Origin: Pseudobdellovibrionaceae bacterium
Lineage (GTDB): Bacteria; Bdellovibrionota; Bdellovibrionia; Bdellovibrionales; Bdellovibrionaceae
Direction of reading: 5' to 3'
Assembly: GCA_013359135.1 (NCBI GenBank)
Contig: JABWCN010000030.1
Location: 1-53,258 of the forward strand
Length of the DNA stretch: 53,258 nt
Part shown: positions 137-24,731 of the stretch, in pieces
How positions within the stretch are numbered: position 1 is the first letter of the stretch
How the letters are laid out: every line of letters begins with the position of its first letter
Made by a program: the position numbers and the translations under genes
Notes under the pieces: model-generated
Database searches by the model: none
What the model saw: the letters and a program-made list of their open reading frames with translations, nothing else
What the model was told of the DNA's origin: nothing

Positions 137-1735
137 ATGGAAGGTCACTTTGGTGATATTGTAGCGGTCTATATTGATCGTGCGAAATCAGGGAAAGACA
201 CTAATCGCCCTGAGCTTCAAAAGTTACTTATGGCCATTCGTAAACATGAAACAAATCTCGTGATGGTCAGTGAGCTTTCAAGGATCTCAAGGTCCATTAA
301 AGATTTTTCTGAAATCTGGCAGTTAATGAAAGACAATGACTGTGGGTTTCAATCGCTCAGGGAAAATTTTGATACGACCACCGCCGCAGGTGAAATGGTT
401 CTATTTACGGTTGCAAATATCGCACAATTTGAAAGACGCCAAATTTCAGAAAGGGTCTCTGCAAATTTTCATGTAAGATCTCAGCGCGGACTTTTTAACG
501 GTGGTGCTATCCCTTTTGGTTACAAAAGAATTCAAGATAAGCCTGGATATTTAGAAATTGACGAAGAGTGGGCTCCATCTGTGCGAGCAGCCTTTAGGGC
601 TGTCATTTCAGAGGGAACACTTGCAGGCGCTGCAAAATGGCTGAATGTTCAAGGATTCAAAGTAAAGCCAGCGCGCGAAGGTGGCGGATTAAGAACGAGG
701 ATGGGCTTTTATACAGTTAGAAATCTCGGAGAGATTATCAGATCAAAGTTTTATATTGGAATAAAGGTCTATACTCAAAATGGCGAGAAAAAAGAAACCG
801 AAGCTGTATGGACTCCCATTGTGGAGCGTGATTTATTTGATCGCGCCAATGAGGTTTTGAATAAAAATCATCGCCGTCATAAGGAGACAATGACAGATCG
901 CTATCCTTACATGTTGTCAGGCCTTGTGTTTTGCAAAAAATGTGGTGATCGAATGGTTGGAAAATCAGCTCATGGAAATTCTGGAAAAGTTGGATATTAT
1001 GAACATGCCTCTAACACAGTACCAGGGGCTCATGTGCCAGAACTTCAAAGAACCTGCGAGCATGTCAGAGTTCAGGCAAAGCTTTTAGAACCTGCTCTTT
1101 GGAGTGAGATTCTTGGCCTATTCAATGAAGAAAAATTAGCCAGAGAATTGTTAACCCAAGCCAAGCGCGTTCATCAAATAAATCCAGGATCAAAAGAAGC
1201 TGAAAAATGTAATCACATTATTTTCAACGTCGATAGGCAGCTTGAGGTTATGGCAGAAAGACTTGCAACACTTCCAGAATCAATTTCGCCGACACCGATC
1301 TACAAACAAATGGAAAAACTAGAAGAGAAGAAAAAGGAAGCTCAAAACAAAATCACACAAATGCAATCAACGGGTTTTATCAAGGATGAACCTTGTGAAC
1401 TTCAAGATTTTCAAAAGTTTTTGAAGTCAGTCAGGGAGCTTTTGAAGAAAGAAGATAATCTAAAAGTTAGGATGAAGATCATTAGATTATTGGTTTATAA
1501 AATCCATATTATCCCAGACGGATTCGAGGCTCATTTCAAAGTTGGTGAATCTTATGTGAAGATATTTTTGATTAATTTTGGAAAAACAGAGAGACAAAAC
1601 GATCAAGGTGAAAATCAATTTACAGATTTACAAAAAAGAAACGCGTTACCTGAAATTTCTTCAGGTAACGCGTCGCAATTTTTTTGGCATTTCAGTTCGA
1701 ATACTTGTCAGAATGGTGCCCCGCGAGGGACTTGA
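137..1735 (+). CDS. Serine site-specific recombinase, N-terminally truncated
   Basis: Resembles resolvase/invertase-type recombinases, which cut and rejoin DNA through a serine. The protein starts inside the catalytic domain: residues 46-53 (ELSRISRS) match the helix carrying catalytic arginines, but the Y-x-R-x-S serine motif is absent from the frame. A Recombinase domain follows (about 115-250) and then a zinc ribbon: C-K-K-C near 265, with a later His and Cys replacing the usual second Cys pair. A coiled coil occupies about 360-460. The last 30 or so residues are encoded by a terminator hairpin and the 3' end of tRNA-Leu, so the natural C-terminus has probably been lost or extended. It is probably inactive, a remnant of an element integrated at the tRNA. 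An in-frame stop at 83-85 rules out an upstream start within the window. Confidence 0.8.
   Translation: MEGHFGDIVAVYIDRAKSGKDTNRPELQKLLMAIRKHETNLVMVSELSRISRSIKDFSEIWQLMKDNDCGFQSLRENFDTTTAAGEMVLFTVANIAQFERRQISERVSANFHVRSQRGLFNGGAIPFGYKRIQDKPGYLEIDEEWAPSVRAAFRAVISEGTLAGAAKWLNVQGFKVKPAREGGGLRTRMGFYTVRNLGEIIRSKFYIGIKVYTQNGEKKETEAVWTPIVERDLFDRANEVLNKNHRRHKETMTDRYPYMLSGLVFCKKCGDRMVGKSAHGNSGKVGYYEHASNTVPGAHVPELQRTCEHVRVQAKLLEPALWSEILGLFNEEKLARELLTQAKRVHQINPGSKEAEKCNHIIFNVDRQLEVMAERLATLPESISPTPIYKQMEKLEEKKKEAQNKITQMQSTGFIKDEPCELQDFQKFLKSVRELLKKEDNLKVRMKIIRLLVYKIHIIPDGFEAHFKVGESYVKIFLINFGKTERQNDQGENQFTDLQKRNALPEISSGNASQFFWHFSSNTCQNGAPRGT
1641..1685. terminator. Strong bidirectional terminator
   Basis: A perfect 14-bp inverted repeat (1641-1654 with 1660-1673, 5-base loop) is followed by a T-run at 1679-1685 on the plus strand. 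On the minus strand it is followed by a T-rich tract (the A-run at 1632-1640). On the minus strand it lies just past the tRNA-Leu 3' end and would terminate the gcvTH/tRNA transcript. It sits inside the open frame of the recombinase. Confidence 0.85.
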
Positions 1736-1798
1736 ACCCCCACGCCTTACGGCACTAGATCCTAAGTCTAGCGTGTCTGCCAATTTCACCAGCGGGGC
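1714..1798 (-). tRNA. tRNA-Leu (anticodon UAG)
   Basis: On the minus strand the 85-nt sequence begins GCCCCGC and ends GCGGGGC-A-CCA, a perfect 7-bp acceptor stem with encoded CCA. The anticodon stem CTAGA/TCTAG encloses the loop CTTAGGA, giving anticodon TAG (plus-strand positions 1762-1764), which reads CUA leucine codons. A long variable arm (TGCCGTAAGGCGT) marks a class II tRNA, and the T arm GGGGG-TTCAAGT-CCCTC is canonical. It lies 42 bases past the gcvH stop in the same direction and may be cotranscribed. Its 3' end is overlapped by the recombinase frame, as expected for an integration site. Confidence 0.97.
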
Positions 1799-3465: not shown

Positions 3466-3579
3466 TCTAATTAACAACTGTTTTCTTGGATATCAAAATG
3501 AGTATTCCTTATTGAGAAACGATTATTAAATAGTACTAAAGTGTTAGCATTTAAGTATCGAAAAATAATCGGGGATAAA

Positions 3580-6500
3580 ATGAAATTAAAAAAGCAATTA
3601 ATAATATGGGTTTTTCTAAGTTTTACTTCCGTCTTGTTTTATCAGAACTGTGGTCAGCAAGGTCAAATATCACTAAAAGTCGATCCAGAGCAGACCGGTG
3701 GGGAAAAAGACGACATCTGTCAAGTCAATCCAACCCATCCAGTATGTACGAATATAGACCCAGTTGGAAAAATTGAAGAATATCGCTATATTGATGTTAG
3801 TCAGCCAGTTATACCTGATTTAAAAATATTTTTAATTTTAGATAACTCGGATTCTATGCGAGTAAGTCAGGTGAATCTTGTTAATAATATTGAAAAAATG
3901 TTTTCTGCAAATGGTGATGGCCTGAGAGATTACAATTCAGAAATATTTATCATCACAACAGCACAGTTAAATAATATTAGTAATCAGTTGGTTAAAACCT
4001 CGATTGATTTTAAAAATAATTACATAAAAGTTTTAGAAAAACTATATTACGTTGATAGTGCAAACTTTACTAGTCAACTGCTGTCATTTCTGCGTCCAAA
4101 TTTAAGTGGTTCTATCAAAACCAACGGATTGCTTGCTGGTGATATGATTGGATTTTATGCAAAATCTAAAAGAACCCCGTCTTCCATTGGGCCCATCTAT
4201 GATTCTTTTGAAAATACTTTCTATCCAGCTTATCTAACCCATCCTAACCAACCCTCAATTCTTTCAGTTAAGTTTACAAAAGGTGGTTCTATAGCCGAGC
4301 TGGTTGATAAGCTTAAAGAGCGAGTTGAACTTTTAAACCCAGATAGTCAATTGCTGTCTAAGTCAATTTTGTTAAGTGACAATAGTACAGTTGATAACGT
4401 TCCCTTGTCTGATGTTGTAGAAAAAGAAAGTGGTATGTGTGCTTTAGGTAGAGTTTTGAACGAGGCAAAAAATAATCCAGAAGGTTCCCTAATTAAAAAA
4501 GGAGAGTTAGCTACATTTATATTAGTTTCAGATGAGGAAGAGCATGATATTTCCGGCACAGAGTGTGTAAAGTCTTATAAATTTCAACAACCTTTGCCAG
4601 GAACACTTTATAGAGGTATTTGTGCTGATGATGAGGCCAGCACTTATTACGAAATTCCTGATAAACGTGATTGGAAATTAGAAGTTAAAAAGCCTTACAT
4701 AAAAAATATTCGTCAAGCTCAAGAACACATCAACAGCCAGATCAATAAGGTAGATGGTCAGTGTGCAGTTAACTTTAGGCAGTCTTATGCTAGGCTTAAA
4801 GTTTTAAAAAATACTCACAAAGTTAGATTCTCAAGAAAAATTTCTAACGCTGATGGCAGCACCTACATAAAATCTTGGTCACATGATTTGAATTTTAATA
4901 GAGTTAATAAAAAGTACACTTTTACATTTGATAGAAAATCGTTAAAACATAAAGTCAAATTTGATAGAACTTCAGTGAAGCATCAAGTCTCAGCTAATCG
5001 AAAATTAACCACTCCAGTGTACAGTGTTGCAATATCAAGAGATTTGATTTCAAAATATCAAAGTGTCAATTATGTCAGAAAAGTCATTTTGACGAAAGAA
5101 GGTAGCAAACAGGTTGAGGTTAGTAATAGTGGTACACTCAATATAAAAATTCCAGGAGTTAATATATCAGCAAGTGACTGTACAGCCTCGTGGTTGGCGG
5201 CAAGAGCAGAAATTAAAGCTCTTGAAGTTCCACTTTCTAGTAGCTCTGAAAGCTATTCTTATTCTGTTTCATCTTGCGCTATCGCAAATACAACAAAATT
5301 AGAGTCTTTTGCTCAGAATTACTCCGGTATTAAACCTTTAAATTGTGATGTGAATTTTGCGGAGTTAGTATTTCCTAAGTCGGTAATGCAATCTAATGAT
5401 GAATATAAGTATAGTAATATAACTTGTACACAGTTAGCCAACAATGTAGTGAGCTACAGTTTTAATTCTAACGATATTTCAGGAGAGGCTCCAACTGGTG
5501 CTAGTTGTAATGCGATTTATGCGGCAGCTAAAGACAGCTCTAAGCCAACTGTAAATACTTCTCTTGGGCAGGAGTTAACATATGAAAGTGTTGTTTGTGC
5601 GTCATCAAATTCGACCTCAAACAACGTCGAGCTAACTGGTTTTCCTGGGAATTGTTCACTGGTAGGAGATTTATTGTCTTATATAAAACTTAAGGACGGA
5701 AGTTTAGCCAATGTAAGTTACGCGAATACGAGTTGTGTAGATACAAATGTCACCTCTTTAGCACAAACAAGAACGGAACTTGGGACCTATAGTGGTTCAT
5801 CATGTGCTGATAGCATAAAATCTCTGGAAGGAAATTTGACTAATACAGTTTATGAAAACTGTTCGGTGGCTTTAGCAAATGTCACAGATTCTTATCAGAG
5901 TATCAAGGGTATTCCAGGGCAGTACACATACACGAATGATGCTAATTTGATAACTTATATCAGGGTGAAAGATGGAAACAAGTCTGTGGATAGCACAGAC
6001 TATAATTTAACATCTATTAATATCGTAGGTAGAGAAAAATATGTAAATATTCCGGTCTATGCTGATGATGTAGCTCAGTACTCGTTATCAATTGATGGAA
6101 AAATTCCAGCTGTTTGTGATTTAAACTACGCCTCGCTTAAGGACACAGCTAAGCCCAGCTTAGGCAGTGGTCAGTATCTAGTTTATTATGATGTGTCTTG
6201 TATCGCAAATGCTCAGACTAATTATCAATTGGCTCGTGGAGACCAGGTTATAAAATATGATGGATCCTATGGGAATTTATTACTGCCTTACGAGTCAAGT
6301 TTAGAGTCGGTGATCCGAGATTGTAACAGCACAGAGAAAAGTACTTTAATAAGTTCAGAAGCTAGTAAATCACCAGCACTGGTTATCGATGGAAATATTC
6401 TTGAGTTTTCATCTTGTAAAGTTTCAAATTCTGCCTTGTCAACAGCAACAACAGAATCTAATAATATTTTGAAGCTGATAAACGCTGATAGTAATGTTCT

Positions 6501-8106
6501 TGTTGGAACTAATAGTAGCGTTTGTTCTACAGCAATAACTTCCTATTGTGCGCCTGGTGCGACTAATAATCCCAATGGTTACTATGGATGTTTAAACAAT
6601 GCTGCTAGTTTTGTTCCTTACGTTGCATTTAAAGCAGAAAAAAGAAAATATGTTTTAAAGCCACCAATATTTTTATCTGATAAAAAGGAGTTACATTGGT
6701 TTGGGTTTGAGCCTATACAAATAACAACTATATCTGGAGCAACACAAACGATAAGTTTACTATCTTATTTTTGTGAAGATGTTGTAGGCGCTTGTGAATC
6801 GGATAGTATTGTTAATAAAATGAGTGTCGAAAATTACTTTAAACAAAAATATGCCAGTGGTGATGAAAATGTTTGGAGCTCAATTAAAAAAGTGTCATTT
6901 TCTGATCAAACTGTTTCTGATCCAAGTAGTTTAGCTATTGCTTGTTCTCCAGATACACTCATTGATTACAGTGGAAGTTCTGATGCTAGGAAAGACTATG
7001 ATATCTGTAATAACAAGTCAGTCAATGCATCCAAGTCTTTTGATATTGTCTACGACCTGAGTCTTTCAAATATTGTTGTCACAAAAAATATCAATGATGC
7101 TATTTCCTGCGATGAAGTTTGTACAACTGAAACTTGTAAAGCAAAGGATGGATCTCGAGAGTTGATACCTATAATTACTAATGACAATGGAGTTGCAAGA
7201 GCCTTAACAATGAAGGAATTTTATGGTGGTAATTGTAGTGTAAATCCAAACTATGTTGCAAGCACGCAAGTATCTAAAAGAAATTTAGCTAAGGTAAAAC
7301 TTGCAGATACACAACGAGATAATATTAAGTACGACAATGGTACTGATATTTGTAACTTAACTTGTAAGGATTCAGGACTTTGTAAGGCGGCTGCAAATAG
7401 TGTTGTTGATACATCAGGTATAACAATTAAAGAGTTTATTGCTAAAGTGAATGGAATTAGTGCCACGAATGTGACAGTTTGTAAGTCATCACGAGTACCA
7501 GAAATAGCAGTGGAGAACAAGTCTTCACAATCAGAAGTAGAAGTCGCTTGTACGAAGCCATCGGGAACTGTACTTGCGAGTAAGTACATAAAAAATAAAA
7601 ATATATCCTCTTATTTAGGTTCCCTATTACCTAATGGTCACAGTGAGTTTATTTTGGTGAAGGAAAACAGCAAGGATTTGAAGGATTACGCAACATCTTC
7701 TTTTGCATCGGTTATAGGAGATGGCTTTGTTTCGATGGCTACCTTTACATCTAAAGCTATTGACAATGGAAAAGTTGTTGGAGCTGATTATGATGATTTG
7801 GCAAGATCTGTGAATGGAATAGTAAAAGATGTAAAAGCATCAAGTGATGATTATGGAACAGCATTAAAATTTCTTGGTGAGAAGGTATCGTCTCAACTGA
7901 AAAGTAGTTTTCAGTTGACTGATGTAGATCCAAGTCAGCAAGTGACTAAAGTTTGGTACTCTTCATGGTTTACTAAAGGAAAATTTATACAATTAAGTCC
8001 GACAGACTTTAGTGCTAGTGGTCCAAGTATTGTCATTACAAACCCAGTAATTATTGAAAAGATGAAAAATGAAGCTGCGTTCAAGTTTTTCGTAGAGATT
8101 TTTTAA
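3580..8106 (+). CDS. Giant lipoprotein with VWA domain and Cys-containing repeats
   Basis: The preferred start is ATG 3580, after GGGGATAA, rather than GTG 3541. This gives 1508 residues beginning with a basic, hydrophobic signal and a lipobox-like Y-Q-N-C-G (Cys24), so a lipid-anchored envelope protein is likely. A von Willebrand A-like domain follows, with the metal-site motif D-N-S-D-S starting near residue 88 and a later SDEEEH segment near 320. The middle (about 520-950) holds loosely repeated units of roughly 70-100 residues, each with one or more Cys and segments like CDLNYASLKD, CNAIYAAAKD and CDVNFAELVF. Further Cys-rich sequence extends to the C-terminus. VWA domains usually bind protein ligands, so adhesion or envelope display is plausible. 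The exact role is unknown, and it stands alone in its own transcript. Confidence 0.8.
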   Translation: MKLKKQLIIWVFLSFTSVLFYQNCGQQGQISLKVDPEQTGGEKDDICQVNPTHPVCTNIDPVGKIEEYRYIDVSQPVIPDLKIFLILDNSDSMRVSQVNLVNNIEKMFSANGDGLRDYNSEIFIITTAQLNNISNQLVKTSIDFKNNYIKVLEKLYYVDSANFTSQLLSFLRPNLSGSIKTNGLLAGDMIGFYAKSKRTPSSIGPIYDSFENTFYPAYLTHPNQPSILSVKFTKGGSIAELVDKLKERVELLNPDSQLLSKSILLSDNSTVDNVPLSDVVEKESGMCALGRVLNEAKNNPEGSLIKKGELATFILVSDEEEHDISGTECVKSYKFQQPLPGTLYRGICADDEASTYYEIPDKRDWKLEVKKPYIKNIRQAQEHINSQINKVDGQCAVNFRQSYARLKVLKNTHKVRFSRKISNADGSTYIKSWSHDLNFNRVNKKYTFTFDRKSLKHKVKFDRTSVKHQVSANRKLTTPVYSVAISRDLISKYQSVNYVRKVILTKEGSKQVEVSNSGTLNIKIPGVNISASDCTASWLAARAEIKALEVPLSSSSESYSYSVSSCAIANTTKLESFAQNYSGIKPLNCDVNFAELVFPKSVMQSNDEYKYSNITCTQLANNVVSYSFNSNDISGEAPTGASCNAIYAAAKDSSKPTVNTSLGQELTYESVVCASSNSTSNNVELTGFPGNCSLVGDLLSYIKLKDGSLANVSYANTSCVDTNVTSLAQTRTELGTYSGSSCADSIKSLEGNLTNTVYENCSVALANVTDSYQSIKGIPGQYTYTNDANLITYIRVKDGNKSVDSTDYNLTSINIVGREKYVNIPVYADDVAQYSLSIDGKIPAVCDLNYASLKDTAKPSLGSGQYLVYYDVSCIANAQTNYQLARGDQVIKYDGSYGNLLLPYESSLESVIRDCNSTEKSTLISSEASKSPALVIDGNILEFSSCKVSNSALSTATTESNNILKLINADSNVLVGTNSSVCSTAITSYCAPGATNNPNGYYGCLNNAASFVPYVAFKAEKRKYVLKPPIFLSDKKELHWFGFEPIQITTISGATQTISLLSYFCEDVVGACESDSIVNKMSVENYFKQKYASGDENVWSSIKKVSFSDQTVSDPSSLAIACSPDTLIDYSGSSDARKDYDICNNKSVNASKSFDIVYDLSLSNIVVTKNINDAISCDEVCTTETCKAKDGSRELIPIITNDNGVARALTMKEFYGGNCSVNPNYVASTQVSKRNLAKVKLADTQRDNIKYDNGTDICNLTCKDSGLCKAAANSVVDTSGITIKEFIAKVNGISATNVTVCKSSRVPEIAVENKSSQSEVEVACTKPSGTVLASKYIKNKNISSYLGSLLPNGHSEFILVKENSKDLKDYATSSFASVIGDGFVSMATFTSKAIDNGKVVGADYDDLARSVNGIVKDVKASSDDYGTALKFLGEKVSSQLKSSFQLTDVDPSQQVTKVWYSSWFTKGKFIQLSPTDFSASGPSIVITNPVIIEKMKNEAAFKFFVEIF

Positions 8107-16386: not shown

Positions 16387-17490
16387 ATGGGCTTCATGCT
16401 TAAACACAAACCATTATTTTTTTTAATGTTGACACTAGTTCTTTTCGTAAGCCTTGGGCAGGCTAATGAGTGTTTAGTGACCTATTTTAGTCCTCAAAAG
16501 AAAATCTTTTTTTCTCAATTGAATGAATATGTTGAACATCACGGTGAATGGTATGAGTTAGCGATTCCAACGGAAAAAGGATTTGAGCATAAAATAGTAA
16601 ACTCCTGGGGTGAGGTCACTCGGCTTTTTGAGCAAGTTCCTGTAGAGCATAGAGAGCGTGTACGTAAGTTACTTTGGTTTGCTGAAAAAAAAAGGGAGCA
16701 GCTTATTGAGCATTTTAAACCCATTGCTGAAAAATACAGAGCTCAATTTAAAGTTAGAATTAAAGATATTAATTCATTGAGAAGAAAAATTTTAGATAAG
16801 TCTGCTTCAGGAAATTTTTCTTTAAACGAATTAAATGATTTATTAGGTGTTCGTTTAGTCGTTCCGGCAGATTCTGAGCTTGTAAACTATGAGTCAGTCC
16901 TAAGGGCGTATTCAGAGCTAAACAACTCAAAAGTTCAAACAGAGGCACTAACAGAAAAAATATTAAAAGATCATTTTTCTAAGGTATTTCATTTGGAAAA
17001 GAAGAGTATAATAGAAGTAGAGATTAAGGGAACTCTTAAGGAGATGGAGAAGGGAAGATATTACCGGGCCATTCATTTAGCTTTACGTCCCGATAATGAA
17101 ACTCGAGTTGAAGTTCAAATTATGACCGAAGGGATGCAATTGTGGCATAGCTGGGACCACCCAAAGGTTTACAAAGGAAAAATAGCAGATGTTGAGTATA
17201 AGGAAAGATTAAAAAAGTATTCTCAGTCATGGGTTTCAATAATTCGACTCATCGAAGATGTTCAACGCAACCACACGCCAGCTGAAAACTTTTATAAACT
17301 AATTAGAGACCTTAACCTTAATGACAAGTTACCAATGAGGATGATTGCCTATTTACTCGATAGTCGTTTAGTCACCTTGTTTGATATCAAAGTCTCAGAT
17401 CGAATTTCATATGAAATCTTAGAAGGAAACTACACGCCTCGGACTACTTTTAATGAGTATCTGGTGAGAATGCTAACACATTTGAAGTAA
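16387..17490 (+). CDS. Exported protein with RelA/SpoT nucleotide-synthetase domain
   Basis: A 367-residue protein whose central part (about 110-265) matches the (p)ppGpp synthetase domain, which transfers pyrophosphate from ATP to a purine nucleotide. Visible motifs are R124-x-K126-x3-S130 (ATP site), D151-L-L-G-V-R156 (Mg-binding Asp), Y226-R-A-I-H230 (nucleotide stacking Tyr) and E242-V-Q244-I-M-T (catalytic Glu), then D-H-x3-Y-K at 257-263. All key positions look intact. No HD hydrolase, TGS or ACT domain is present. Residues 1-26 form a signal peptide (basic HK, long hydrophobic core, G-Q-A then N), which is abnormal because ATP and GTP are cytoplasmic. About 100 C-terminal residues are unassigned. 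No antitoxin-like gene adjoins it and its neighbour is convergent. An exported effector toxin is one possibility; function is not established. ATG 16396 is an alternative start. Confidence 0.8.
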   Translation: MGFMLKHKPLFFLMLTLVLFVSLGQANECLVTYFSPQKKIFFSQLNEYVEHHGEWYELAIPTEKGFEHKIVNSWGEVTRLFEQVPVEHRERVRKLLWFAEKKREQLIEHFKPIAEKYRAQFKVRIKDINSLRRKILDKSASGNFSLNELNDLLGVRLVVPADSELVNYESVLRAYSELNNSKVQTEALTEKILKDHFSKVFHLEKKSIIEVEIKGTLKEMEKGRYYRAIHLALRPDNETRVEVQIMTEGMQLWHSWDHPKVYKGKIADVEYKERLKKYSQSWVSIIRLIEDVQRNHTPAENFYKLIRDLNLNDKLPMRMIAYLLDSRLVTLFDIKVSDRISYEILEGNYTPRTTFNEYLVRMLTHLK

Positions 17491-17514: not shown

Positions 17515-17976
17515 CTAGGAAGCACTTTTTATTCTTTCTTTTGAGCTAAGTAATTTTTTAAAATCTAATTCTTTAGTATTAAGTACGGATTTCACATCTA
17601 AAATTAAGCATATTTTTTCTTCCCTATAAACTATCTGCTGAATATAATCGGGAATTCCTTCAGTTTCATTTTTGGGTTTAAGCTCATGGCTTTCTGGGGT
17701 AATCACATTGTGGATACAATCGACGACAATGCCATAGGGCTTGCTATCGACCTCGCAGACTATTACAGCTGTATCGTAACTAAGCGTAGGCGTCATACCA
17801 AAGGTAATACGTAAATCGACAATAGGTAAAATTTCATTTCTAAGATAGCTGATACCAAGAAACTTCTTTGAGGATCCAGGAACTGGAGAAATCTCAGGAA
17901 AGCTAATAACTTCTCTGACTTGTTCAAGGGAAACACCAAATGATTCTTCTTTTAGGTTGAAACTTAAATATCTCAT
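17515..17976 (-). CDS. cheW: CheW-like chemotaxis coupling protein
   Basis: A 153-residue single CheW domain: F-x-V-x-L-E-Q-V-R-E-V-I near residues 13-25, then L-R-N-E-I-L-P-I-V-D-L-R near 46, then D-x-Y-G-I-V-V-D near 78-86. CheW links chemoreceptor tips to the kinase CheA at the cytoplasmic array. A strong AAGGAG site precedes ATG 17976. It lies 9 bases after the chemoreceptor-like gene upstream, so the two are almost certainly cotranscribed and this CheW probably serves that receptor. No cheA, cheY, cheB or cheR is in the window. Confidence 0.9.
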   Translation of the reverse strand: MRYLSFNLKEESFGVSLEQVREVISFPEISPVPGSSKKFLGISYLRNEILPIVDLRITFGMTPTLSYDTAVIVCEVDSKPYGIVVDCIHNVITPESHELKPKNETEGIPDYIQQIVYREEKICLILDVKSVLNTKELDFKKLLSSKERIKSAS

Positions 17977-17985
17977 GGAGCTCCT

Positions 17986-20115
17986 TTATACAATCCACTT
18001 AATTTTTTGCTTGAATTTTTGTTCTGGGGTTATGCTTTGTGCTTCTTGAGATGCATTCTTTGGTCTTTGAGTCACAACAACCCAGTTCTGTCCCTTGTAG
18101 GAGTTATAACCTTTCGAGGAAGAATATCCCATGATAAAGGCTGGTTCATTTTTAGCTGGTGTTTTATTGGTGATACCAGAGTTGTTAGGAGAAAAATTTT
18201 GAATAAAAGACTCAGTTTTAAAAGATTTTTTTAAGATCTCTTCAGGAGTTTTGGAGGCAATAATTTGAGAACGTCTATTGATAAGATAAGTTTCACTTTT
18301 GGAATCGACGATAGTTGCCTTAATAATATCATTAAGAAAGTTACAGTTAAACCAGCTTACGATAACACCTATGATTTCATTATTTTCATTAATTATTGGA
18401 GAGCTAAACTTAATAACTGGGTTTTTGAGATGTTCTGCATACTCAATATCGGAATAATAAATTTGTCCATTAAGGGCCTCACGGAACCACTCTGTATTTT
18501 CGTAATTTTGATTCATCATAGATTGATCTATTGCTGATGCAACAACATCACCATTGACGTTTAAGATGTAAAGATCATGATAAACTTCATAAATTTTATG
18601 AATTTTCTGAAGTAGTTCAATGGCTTCTTTATCTGCAAATCGTTGTTGTTCCAAAATTTCTTTGAATTTATTAAAAGTCGACCATGCTTGAATATCGCAG
18701 TATCTTTCAAATAAATTTCTATCTACTTTGCTAGAAGTATCCTTAGCAGCATCAAGAAGGCGAATTGAAATTGATTCATCGACTACTTTACGTAAGTTAT
18801 CTGTGGCAATATTAATAGTTTCAACAAAGTTCAAACTTTTTTTAGCTAAAAGTGCTACTTCATTAGCAATGATAGAAAATCCTTCTCCATCAGATCCAGC
18901 TATTCCAGCTTGAATTGAAGCATTCACGGCAAGAAGTTTAACTTCTCTATTGTTAGCATTAATTTCATAAACTAGTTCATCAATTTCTTTCATGGTATTA
19001 ATAAGGGCTAAACCTGATTTTTCTGAGTCAATCTGAGAAGAAGCTTCTTCTGGATATACCAACGTTGTAGTGCCATCGTTATTTCTTCTACTTAGGGGTT
19101 TTGCATGTATAGGAATACTTGTGGTATTTATTGACTCGGAAATGATAGCTGACCAACCTTTTCCTCTGTAGGCGTTGTACCCTTTGGTATAACAAAATCC
19201 AACAGCTAAGGACTCACCATTTCTGGCTTTTTCTAAGGAGTAACCAACATGTTGTTTACATGAGAGTCTTCCTGCCTTGAGCCAATCGTAATGATCTTGC
19301 ATAATTTGTGATTCATGGGCAGAAGCAATAACTTTTGAGCGATTATTAATTATAACTGCATTTGTTAGTTCAGAATATTGTCCGCTTGTAATCATTTCCA
19401 AAGCAAAATCCCAGTTAAAAAAATTAGCTAAAACTCCTATGATTTCATTATCAGCAGACATTACAGGAGAGCAGTAGGCCACAGTATTGTTTTTGATTAA
19501 ATGATTAAAGTGAGCATCGGTTACAGTTACTTGTCCATCTCTAGTAGTAAGAAACCAATCTTCGTGTATTAAGTTTTGTCCAATTAAACTACGGCTTTTG
19601 GCACTAGCTATAATTTTTCCTGATTTATCTAAAAGTAAAGATTCAGAATACACCATGTAGATCATAACTAATTTTTCAAGTTGATCGCAGGCAGCAGATA
19701 TATTTTCTGAAGTTGAGCTGAGAATTGCATTTTTTATAGAATCAAAGGTGGCCCACGCTTGGACATCGCAATTTCTTTCAAAGAGATTACGATCAAGTTT
19801 ATCTATTAAATCAGCTGCTAGCTCTAGATTTCTTATAGCCACAGCATCAAGAGCTTGTGATTGAATTTTTTTAACGATAGAAGTTAGTTTTTCACTTAAA
19901 GAATTATTTTTTTGAGCTTGATTTGAAATTTGTTGAGCTACAATCGAAAAAGTCCCAGTACGGTTTTTCATTTTTGCGCCTTCGATGGCGGCACAAAGGG
20001 CAATAAAATTAGCTTTTTGGTTTATCTCTTCAAGAATTTGTAGTGATTTTTCTAGCCCACCACTAGCTTCAATTAAAATATTTGCCTGTTGATTCTCTTT
20101 GTTTATTTCGGACAC
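17986..20115 (-). CDS. Soluble chemoreceptor-like protein, tandem [MCP tip + Cache]
   Basis: 709 residues with no transmembrane segment or signal peptide. Each half begins with a methyl-accepting-chemotaxis-type hairpin tip and continues into a Cache-like sensor domain. Copy A: tip about 25-80 (ALCAAIEGAKMKNRTGTFSIVA, degenerate), sensor about 100-345. Copy B: tip about 375-430 (NASIQAGIAGSDGEGFSIIANEV, well preserved), sensor about 460-690. The halves share DRNLFER-x-CD-x-QAW, an EDWF/TEWF element, G-V-L/I-V near a Pro-containing loop, and GYN-x-Y-x-G-x-x-W near the end. Order is reversed relative to classical receptors, with the sensor after the tip. It starts at GTG 20115 behind AAGAGG and is followed by cheW. 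A cytoplasmic small-molecule sensor feeding a chemotaxis-like kinase is a reasonable inference. Confidence 0.75.
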   Translation of the reverse strand: MSEINKENQQANILIEASGGLEKSLQILEEINQKANFIALCAAIEGAKMKNRTGTFSIVAQQISNQAQKNNSLSEKLTSIVKKIQSQALDAVAIRNLELAADLIDKLDRNLFERNCDVQAWATFDSIKNAILSSTSENISAACDQLEKLVMIYMVYSESLLLDKSGKIIASAKSRSLIGQNLIHEDWFLTTRDGQVTVTDAHFNHLIKNNTVAYCSPVMSADNEIIGVLANFFNWDFALEMITSGQYSELTNAVIINNRSKVIASAHESQIMQDHYDWLKAGRLSCKQHVGYSLEKARNGESLAVGFCYTKGYNAYRGKGWSAIISESINTTSIPIHAKPLSRRNNDGTTTLVYPEEASSQIDSEKSGLALINTMKEIDELVYEINANNREVKLLAVNASIQAGIAGSDGEGFSIIANEVALLAKKSLNFVETINIATDNLRKVVDESISIRLLDAAKDTSSKVDRNLFERYCDIQAWSTFNKFKEILEQQRFADKEAIELLQKIHKIYEVYHDLYILNVNGDVVASAIDQSMMNQNYENTEWFREALNGQIYYSDIEYAEHLKNPVIKFSSPIINENNEIIGVIVSWFNCNFLNDIIKATIVDSKSETYLINRRSQIIASKTPEEILKKSFKTESFIQNFSPNNSGITNKTPAKNEPAFIMGYSSSKGYNSYKGQNWVVVTQRPKNASQEAQSITPEQKFKQKIKWIV

Positions 20116-24135: not shown

Positions 24136-24172
24136 AAGCGTAGTGGCTAAATTGAAATTGAGCCACACGCTT
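24136..24172. terminator. Hairpin between convergent genes (weak terminator)
   Basis: AAGCG-TAGTGGCT (24136-24148) pairs with AGCCACACGCTT (24161-24172) with one bulged base. It reaches into the stop codon of the minus-strand gene and lacks a good T-run on either side, so termination is uncertain. Confidence 0.4.
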
Positions 24173-24731
24173 AATTCGGGTTTAGAAATTTTTCTGTTGC
24201 TGGTAGATATTTTGTTTTTTGTTTATAAATGTAGTAAAAATTCTTATAGGAATCAGTTGTTCTTAATTGTGTTAACTTCATTTTAATAATTTTTTTTTGA
24301 TCGCTAGTTAAATTTGGAAAAATGATGCTTTCCAAGTTAATGAATTCAAAATTATTAGGTCTTCCAAGACTGTTCCAAAGTTTTTGTTCACTTTCAATCA
24401 GTGATTTTTCTTTCAAATTGACTTTGAGTTTACGGTTTTGATTTTTCCATGCTGTTGACCAAAACGTGAGGCCTGCATTTCTCACAAAATCTTTATATAA
24501 GTATCCTGGTCCACCAGATAGGTTCATACACCAAAGAAGTCTTTCGTCGGCGTATTTTTTTTCCCGGTAGCTACCACCGGCCCAATATAAAAAATCATGT
24601 TCATAGCAACAGTGCCCCCAATTCCCATTTGGCGAGTTCGTACACCCATCACTTGAAAATTCATTTAAAAATTCGCTGCTAAAACAATTAATTTGAAACA
24701 TGATAAATATTATTAGTATTTGAGATCTCAT
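24171..24731 (-). CDS. Exported phospholipase A2-like protein
   Basis: 186 residues. After an N-terminal hydrophobic export signal there is DGCTNSPNGNWGHCCYEHD (residues 28-46), ending in the C-C-x-x-H-D active-site motif (Cys41, Cys42, His45, Asp46) of secreted phospholipase A2. YWAGGSYREKKYADERLLWC follows, as in bacterial PLA2-like proteins, with Cys68 available for a disulphide. These enzymes hydrolyse the sn-2 acyl bond of glycerophospholipids using Ca2+. The signal contains F-Q-I-N-C (Cys16), so it might be a lipoprotein rather than freely secreted. About 100 C-terminal residues are unassigned. It diverges from a TetR regulator across a 204-base gap, which suggests but does not show regulation by that protein. 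Confidence 0.72.
   Translation of the reverse strand: MRSQILIIFIMFQINCFSSEFLNEFSSDGCTNSPNGNWGHCCYEHDFLYWAGGSYREKKYADERLLWCMNLSGGPGYLYKDFVRNAGLTFWSTAWKNQNRKLKVNLKEKSLIESEQKLWNSLGRPNNFEFINLESIIFPNLTSDQKKIIKMKLTQLRTTDSYKNFYYIYKQKTKYLPATEKFLNPN

What the first reader, a model, noticed from the sequence alone, without database searches (positions are those of the whole stretch)
17986..20115. Tandem-duplicated, membrane-less chemoreceptor with Cache domains after the signalling tips
Two copies of [MCP-type tip + Cache-like sensor] sit in one soluble protein, the first tip degraded and the second well kept. Cache sensors are usually periplasmic and precede the transmembrane and tip regions. Here the order is inverted with no membrane segment, and cheW follows by 9 bases. 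This could be a cytoplasmic receptor with unusual geometry or a decoy/regulator of a chemotaxis array.
Basis: partly seen in the sequence, partly recalled or inferred. Interest (0 to 1): 0.7.

Follow-up and report, generated by a model that had tools for sequence, protein, structure and literature searches.

The report
Single-chain two-headed soluble chemoreceptor beside amtB
This gene encodes a soluble chemotaxis receptor in which two receptor subunits are fused into one chain, and across three bacterial phyla the two signalling tips have lost opposite key residues, as if one faces the array centre and the other the kinase adaptor.

Summary
In detail: one 709-aa ORF (17986-20115, minus strand) has two homologous units (29% identical, E 3e-49), each an MCP tip followed by a dCache domain, with no membrane segment. 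It lies between amtB (64 bp upstream) and cheW (9 bp downstream). It is not a frameshift artefact: ten other tandem homologues (one truncated) occur in Bdellovibrionota, Leptospirales and one Pseudomonadota MAG. One-unit versions (about 335 aa) are common in Bacillota, and occur in treponemes and on proteobacterial megaplasmids, so "tip before Cache" is an established but unnamed architecture. First units, second units and single-unit proteins form three separate clades, which fits one old duplication. "First tip degraded, second kept" is too simple. Unit 1 keeps the trimer-axis residues E385 and R/K388 (10/10) but loses the G390/G393 turn (0/10) and CheW-contact E402 (1/10). Unit 2 does the reverse: turn and E402 11/11, E385 0/11. 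Single-unit proteins keep all. Best reading: a natural covalent pseudo-dimer with inner and outer roles fixed along the chain. CheW or CheA genes adjoin it in 10/11 loci; amtB is near in 5/11. Ligand and output are unproven; AlphaFold supports packing of the halves but not every hairpin.

The parts
17986..20115 (-). Tandem tip-dCache-tip-dCache chemoreceptor gene, 709 aa, GTG start
   Evidence: homologues
19828..20088 (-). Unit 1 MCP tip arms (residues about 10-96); keeps E385 (E45) and a basic 388 (K48), lacks the G390/G393 turn and E402
   Evidence: AF2 turn at the Tsr 389-392 equivalent
19117..19857 (-). Unit 1 dCache domain (residues about 87-333)
   Evidence: Pfam; fold matches (DctB 3by9_B Z 21.9, 225 residues at 2.2 A)
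19030..19083 (-). Linker between the units (low pLDDT, variable length in homologues)
18763..19029 (-). Unit 2 MCP tip arms (residues about 363-451); keeps G390, G393, E402 equivalents, has Q at 385 and I at 388
18049..18789 (-). Unit 2 dCache domain (residues about 443-689)
   Evidence: Pfam; fold matches
17515..17976 (-). cheW, 153 aa, 9 bp downstream, same operon direction
   Evidence: Pfam CheW 6.8e-31; adjacent cheW also in L031
20180..21583 (-). amtB ammonium transporter, 467 aa, 64 bp upstream
   Evidence: Pfam 3e-119; adjacent amtB in L031 and L034, nearby in L035 and L046
21807..23498 (+). Divergent HisKA_3 sensor kinase whose N-terminal sensor resembles the receptor's dCache (possible co-sensor)
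   Evidence: searches (dCache_1 0.046; 1.2e-5 to residues 102-176), same order in L034
23476..24117 (+). NarL-type response regulator paired with that kinase

Best explanation
It is a natural single-chain chemoreceptor: an old tandem duplication fused two soluble 'tip-dCache' subunits so that one polypeptide forms, in cis, what is normally a receptor dimer. The two halves have become unequal in a complementary way. Unit 1 keeps the residues of the E385-R388' ionic lock used at the axis of a trimer of dimers and has lost the turn glycines and the CheW-contact residue E402. Unit 2 keeps the turn and E402 and has lost E385. I infer that unit 1 is the fixed 'inner' subunit and unit 2 the fixed 'outer', CheW-facing one. 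Each dCache is expected to bind a small cytoplasmic molecule and change the four-helix packing, and so CheA activity, through the CheW encoded 9 bp downstream. The recurrent amtB neighbour suggests the signal relates to nitrogen uptake or status. Shown here: tandem architecture, one-time origin on the tree, tip residue pattern, gene neighbourhoods. Inferred: cis pairing (partly supported by AlphaFold), inner/outer assignment, coupling to CheA, nature of the ligand.
For: Tip counts in Tsr numbering (numbering verified): E385 single 51/51, unit 1 10/10, unit 2 0/11; R or K 388: 51/51, 10/10, 3/11; G390 and G393: 51/51, 0/10, 11/11; E402: 51/51, 1/10, 11/11. Published roles: E385-R388' is an inter-dimer ionic lock (PMC8144572); E402, R404 and R394 contact CheW in the outer subunits (PMC6954272); the inner/outer split of a dimer is described in PMC4692393. 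The spacing from residue 385 to the DRNLFER arginine is exactly 64 in all 72 units, as expected for a register-constrained bundle. On the tree the first units, second units and single-unit proteins each fall on one side of a branch (99/95, 100/98, 99/96). AlphaFold of the tandem: pLDDT 84.7, pTM 0.83, with a unit 1 turn at the Tsr 389-392 equivalent. Two fold alignments place residue 446 beside residues 86-87, i.e. equivalent points of the two halves. A CheW or CheA gene adjoins in 10/11 loci and amtB is near in 5/11.
Against: AlphaFold of a single-unit homologue draws residues 11-125 as one unbroken helix, and unit 2 of the tandem shows only a one-residue break, so the hairpin rests on sequence homology to solved tips more than on prediction. 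No coordinates or PAE could be inspected, so cis pairing is read from pTM. Unit 2 also lacks the R394 and R404 CheW contacts in Bdellovibrionota. The tandem loci are few (11) and related, so the complementary losses may be as few as one event per unit. amtB is absent near the tandem in Leptospirales and in L032, L033 and L100.
Confidence: 0.6

Rival explanations
1. Two separate receptors in one chain: each unit pairs in trans with the same unit of another chain, so the protein is a chain of two different homodimeric receptors that link neighbouring array positions. Degeneration of the tips then reflects different partners.
For: Engineered single-chain Tsr shows subunit swapping between chains (PMC4692393). 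The linker is long and disordered.
Against: Complementary rather than independent loss of residues: homodimers of unit 2 would lack E385 in both subunits and homodimers of unit 1 would lack the turn and E402 in both. pTM 0.83 for the chain alone implies the halves are packed on each other.
Confidence: 0.2
2. Decoy or regulator of the array: a receptor-like protein that titrates CheW or caps arrays and no longer transmits a signal.
For: Both tips depart from the canonical sequence and there are no methylation helices.
Against: Residues kept in each tip are invariant over deep divergence, arm length is invariant, and both dCache domains are conserved with intact folds. Dedicated CheA/CheW genes adjoin in 10/11 loci, including a CheA-REC followed by a REC-REC-cyclase in L037, which points to an output.
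Confidence: 0.1
3. The protein serves a dedicated non-flagellar chemosensory pathway (alternative cellular function) and in the window species plugs into one of two other CheA proteins.
For: Homologous loci encode a large CheA (Hpt-HATPase-CheW-CheW-REC-CheW) or CheW-CheW, CheA-REC and a REC-REC-cyclase next to the tandem gene.
Against: The window genome has only two other CheA loci, each with its own CheW, and no such hybrid, plus many ordinary receptors, so joining the taxis arrays is just as possible. This rival concerns output and is compatible with the pseudo-dimer reading.
Confidence: 0.4

Closest known systems
Natural and engineered single-chain MCPs (R. centenum soluble MCP; Tsr~Tsr fusions, Mowery et al. 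2015, PMC4692393)
   Same: Two MCP signalling units joined in one chain; soluble in the natural cases.
   Different: Here each unit also carries a C-terminal dCache sensor, the units have complementary tip losses, and the gene lies between amtB and cheW. The paper says the function of the natural cases is unknown.
Single-unit soluble tip-dCache proteins annotated only as 'methyl-accepting chemotaxis protein' (e.g. L044 Aneurinibacillus danicus, L135 Caballeronia plasmid, L136 Methylobacterium plasmid)
   Same: Same order (tip then dCache) and no membrane segment seen; in the Bacillota and treponeme members also the same DRNLFERNCDVQAW signature and a 64-residue arm.
   Different: One unit only, intact canonical tip, usually not next to cheW, cheA or amtB.
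Cytoplasmic chemoreceptors (topology IV), e.g. B. subtilis HemAT
   Same: Soluble, signal through a tip without membrane anchor.
   Different: HemAT senses with a globin-like domain (PMC7542364); here the sensor is a tandem dCache, placed after the tip.
dCache_1 sensors such as DctB, KinD, PscC and PctA
   Same: Fold of both sensor domains.
   Different: Those solved domains are extracytoplasmic and precede a transmembrane helix.

Membership tests
MCP chemoreceptor | Conserved hairpin-tip sequence (PF00015) | tested here: met
   1.6e-17, two stretches; tip homologous to 4jpb/3ur1
MCP chemoreceptor | Full signalling domain with methylation helices | tested here: not met
   Only profile positions 30-107 of 172 match in the best stretch; the single-unit relative matches 25-108
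MCP chemoreceptor | Antiparallel tip hairpin in three dimensions | tested here: inconclusive
   Turn in unit 1, one-residue break in unit 2, none in the single-unit model
dCache_1 sensor | Sequence profile and double-PDC fold | tested here: met
   PF02743 6.5e-22; Z about 18-22 to DctB, KinD, PscC and PctA-type domains for both halves
dCache_1 sensor | Known ligand motif (amino acid AA or amine AM) | not tested
   Motif described in PMC10104139; no residue-level alignment to PctA or PctD was made
Cytoplasmic (topology IV) chemoreceptor | No transmembrane segment | tested here: met
   Maximum 19-residue hydropathy 1.2
Natural single-chain receptor | Two MCP signalling units in one chain | tested here: met
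Natural single-chain receptor | The two units pair with each other in cis | tested here: inconclusive
   pTM 0.83 for the chain alone; no coordinates available
Receptor in trimers of dimers | Assembly into trimers with CheA and CheW | not testable with these tools
   -

The most novel reading that the evidence does not exclude
An evolved, obligately asymmetric chemoreceptor in which the inner (trimer-axis) and outer (CheW-facing) subunit roles, which every homodimeric receptor must share between identical chains, have been divided permanently between two fused and complementarily reduced halves, within a mobile amtB-linked sensing cassette.
Probability: 0.45. Interest if true: 0.78.

Novelty: new variant of a known kind. 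Interest (0 to 1): 0.62.

Why it matters
Which residues of a receptor dimer act at the trimer axis and which contact the kinase adaptor is hard to separate in homodimers, because every mutation hits both subunits; that was the stated motive for building single-chain Tsr (PMC4692393). Here evolution seems to have done the separation, in a small soluble protein that can be purified and mutated one half at a time. It also adds a tip-dCache class of cytoplasmic receptor to the known repertoire, and a possible genetic link between ammonium uptake and chemosensory signalling.

Tried and rejected
Frameshift of a conventional receptor: rejected, because ten homologues in three phyla carry the tandem (one truncated at a contig end) and there is no membrane segment. 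Unique oddity of this genome: rejected. A sigma-54 site upstream of amtB: the pattern scan gave as many matches as chance (20 vs 19.8), with none in the amtB-kinase gap. Sigma-70 scan uninformative (14 vs 13.6). Dedicated CheA hybrid elsewhere in the window genome: not found. Viral contigs: one weak tip-only match, ignored. The 441-473 aa protein downstream of the CheA in L032, L033 and L100: no family found even at E 5. No MCP hairpin appears in the listed fold matches, which dCache chains fill. Paper searches for ammonium chemotaxis with amtB-linked receptors gave nothing relevant, and no held paper describes a cytoplasmic tip-first dCache receptor.

Full report
Observation. The ORF at 17986-20115 on the minus strand encodes 709 residues from a GTG start. 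Its halves are 29% identical over about 300 residues, E 3e-49. Each half is a partial MCP signalling tip followed by a dCache domain: PF00015 at 1.6e-17 and PF02743 at 6.5e-22, two stretches each. The MCP match covers only positions 30-107 of 172 in the best stretch, so the methylation helices are missing. The highest 19-residue hydropathy mean is 1.2, so there is no membrane helix. Upstream by 64 bp is amtB (3e-119) and downstream by 9 bp is cheW (6.8e-31), all on the same strand.

Relatives. A scan of bacterial and archaeal genomes followed by ORF analysis found two kinds of relative. The first is a single-unit protein of about 335 residues, tip then dCache, in Bacillota, heliobacteria and treponemes; proteobacterial megaplasmids carry more distant single-unit forms of 342-344 aa annotated only as methyl-accepting chemotaxis protein. 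The second is a tandem protein of about 680-775 residues in Bdellovibrionota (L031-L035, L100), Leptospirales (L037, L045, and the truncated L036) and one Pseudomonadota MAG (L046). In 369 genomes of the window's phylum only six hold the tandem, in three families, and five congeners searched have none. The distribution is therefore patchy and suggests gene transfer or repeated loss. A tree of the dCache parts puts first units, second units and single-unit proteins each on one side of a branch (99/95, 100/98 and 99/96), so one old duplication explains the tandem. This disposes of the frameshift explanation.

The tips. Using Tsr numbering checked against the solved Tsr chains, the residue counts are sharp. 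Glu385: single-unit 51/51, unit 1 10/10, unit 2 0/11 (Q, R or K instead). Arg or Lys388: 51/51, 10/10, 3/11. Gly390 and Gly393 of the turn: 51/51, 0/10, 11/11. Glu402: 51/51, 1/10 (Gln in the other nine), 11/11. So the first tip is not simply worn out; the two tips have lost opposite sets. Glu385 and Arg388' form an ionic lock between dimers at the trimer axis (PMC8144572). Glu402, Arg404 and Arg394 of the outer subunits contact CheW in simulations of the core complex (PMC6954272). In ordinary homodimers one subunit lies at the trimer axis and the other at the periphery (PMC4692393). The simplest reading is that unit 1 is the inner subunit and unit 2 the outer one. A reservation: unit 2 in Bdellovibrionota also lacks Arg394 and Arg404, so the assignment rests chiefly on E385/R388, the turn and E402. 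The units are related by descent, so these counts do not amount to that many independent events; what counts is that the pattern is kept over deep divergence (32-43% identity of the homologues to the window protein). The distance from residue 385 to the arginine of the DRNLFER signature is exactly 64 residues in all 72 units, degenerate ones included, as expected if the arm packs in a fixed register.

Structure. AlphaFold on the tandem alignment gave pLDDT 84.7 and pTM 0.83. A chain whose halves were not fixed to one another would be expected to reach only about half of the possible pTM, so the halves are predicted to pack together; this is inference from pTM because no coordinates could be read. 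Unit 1 has a turn at the equivalent of Tsr 389-392, unit 2 only a one-residue break at the G393 equivalent. In two fold alignments (3c8c_A, 3lib_A) the aligned range runs from residue 86-87 to residue 446, which is the same point in unit 2, suggesting that equivalent positions lie side by side. Both dCache domains match solved dCache domains (DctB 3by9_B Z 21.9, rmsd 2.2, 225 residues). Against this, a single-unit relative folded alone gave an unbroken helix through the tip. A motif that folds only in a dimer may be drawn wrongly as a monomer, so I treat the hairpin as supported by homology to solved tips but not proved.

Neighbourhood. A CheW or CheA gene adjoins the tandem gene in 10 of 11 loci. 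It is a lone cheW in the window and in L031; a large CheA with Hpt, HATPase, two CheW domains, REC and a third CheW in L032, L034 and L100, a matching CheA-encoding stretch in L033, and a similar CheA in L035; and a double CheW followed by CheA in Leptospirales, where L037 also has CheA-REC and a REC-REC-cyclase. amtB adjoins or is within a few genes in the window, L031, L034, L035 and L046. The window amtB is 73% identical to that of L034, a genome of another family, while four of five congeners lack amtB at this threshold. amtB occurs in only 43 of 369 genomes of the phylum but in three of the six tandem-bearing ones (hypergeometric P 0.023, relatedness ignored). The divergent sensor-kinase and regulator pair beside amtB in the window has the same order in L034, and its sensor resembles the receptor's dCache. 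This looks like a cassette that travels together. In G348 a related amtB lies beside a glutamate-synthase-like gene (identified by eye), in keeping with nitrogen assimilation.

Mechanism. I propose that the protein is a covalent pseudo-dimer that senses a cytoplasmic small molecule with two dCache domains and passes the signal through an asymmetric tip to CheA by way of the adjacent CheW. Whether it joins the flagellar arrays or a separate pathway is open. The window genome has two other CheA genes, each near its own cheW, and about eighteen other matches to the receptor, nearly all in the tip.

Novelty. Soluble single-chain MCPs were known in R. [quoted passage not shown] I found no description in the held literature of the tip-first dCache class, of its tandem form, or of complementary tip loss, but most subscription papers are not held, so absence is weak evidence. 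I file it as a new variant of a known kind.

Noticed in passing
window 16387-17490 (+): A RelA/SpoT-domain protein (PF04607, 2.9e-12) that begins with what looks like a signal peptide, convergent with the cheW; an exported RelA/SpoT-like protein would be unusual.
   Followed up: partly
window 24171-24731 (-): Small protein with a signal-peptide-like start and a CCYEHD motif like that of phospholipase A2; no Pfam match at E 0.01.
   Followed up: partly
window 137-1798: Large serine recombinase (Resolvase/Recombinase/Zn ribbon) whose 3' end overlaps a tRNA-Leu gene on the other strand (1714-1798), as if an element had integrated there.
   Followed up: partly
window 3541-8106 (+): 1521-aa protein with a lipoprotein-like start and no Pfam match.
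   Followed up: partly
L032 10333-11682, L033 6109-7530, L100 10252-11577: Conserved 441-473 aa protein downstream of the CheA hybrid with no recognisable family; the C-terminal half reminded me of CheX-like phosphatases, not verified.
   Followed up: partly
L037 6561-8579: REC-REC-adenylate/guanylate cyclase in the tandem receptor's gene cluster in Leptospirales, suggesting a cyclic-nucleotide output.
   Followed up: no
all units, DRNLFERNCDVQAW: A cysteine at the start of the dCache domain is present in 71 of 72 units, whereas the membrane-bound relative L002 has glycine there. The search pattern partly selected for it, so it may or may not mean redox sensing.
   Followed up: partly
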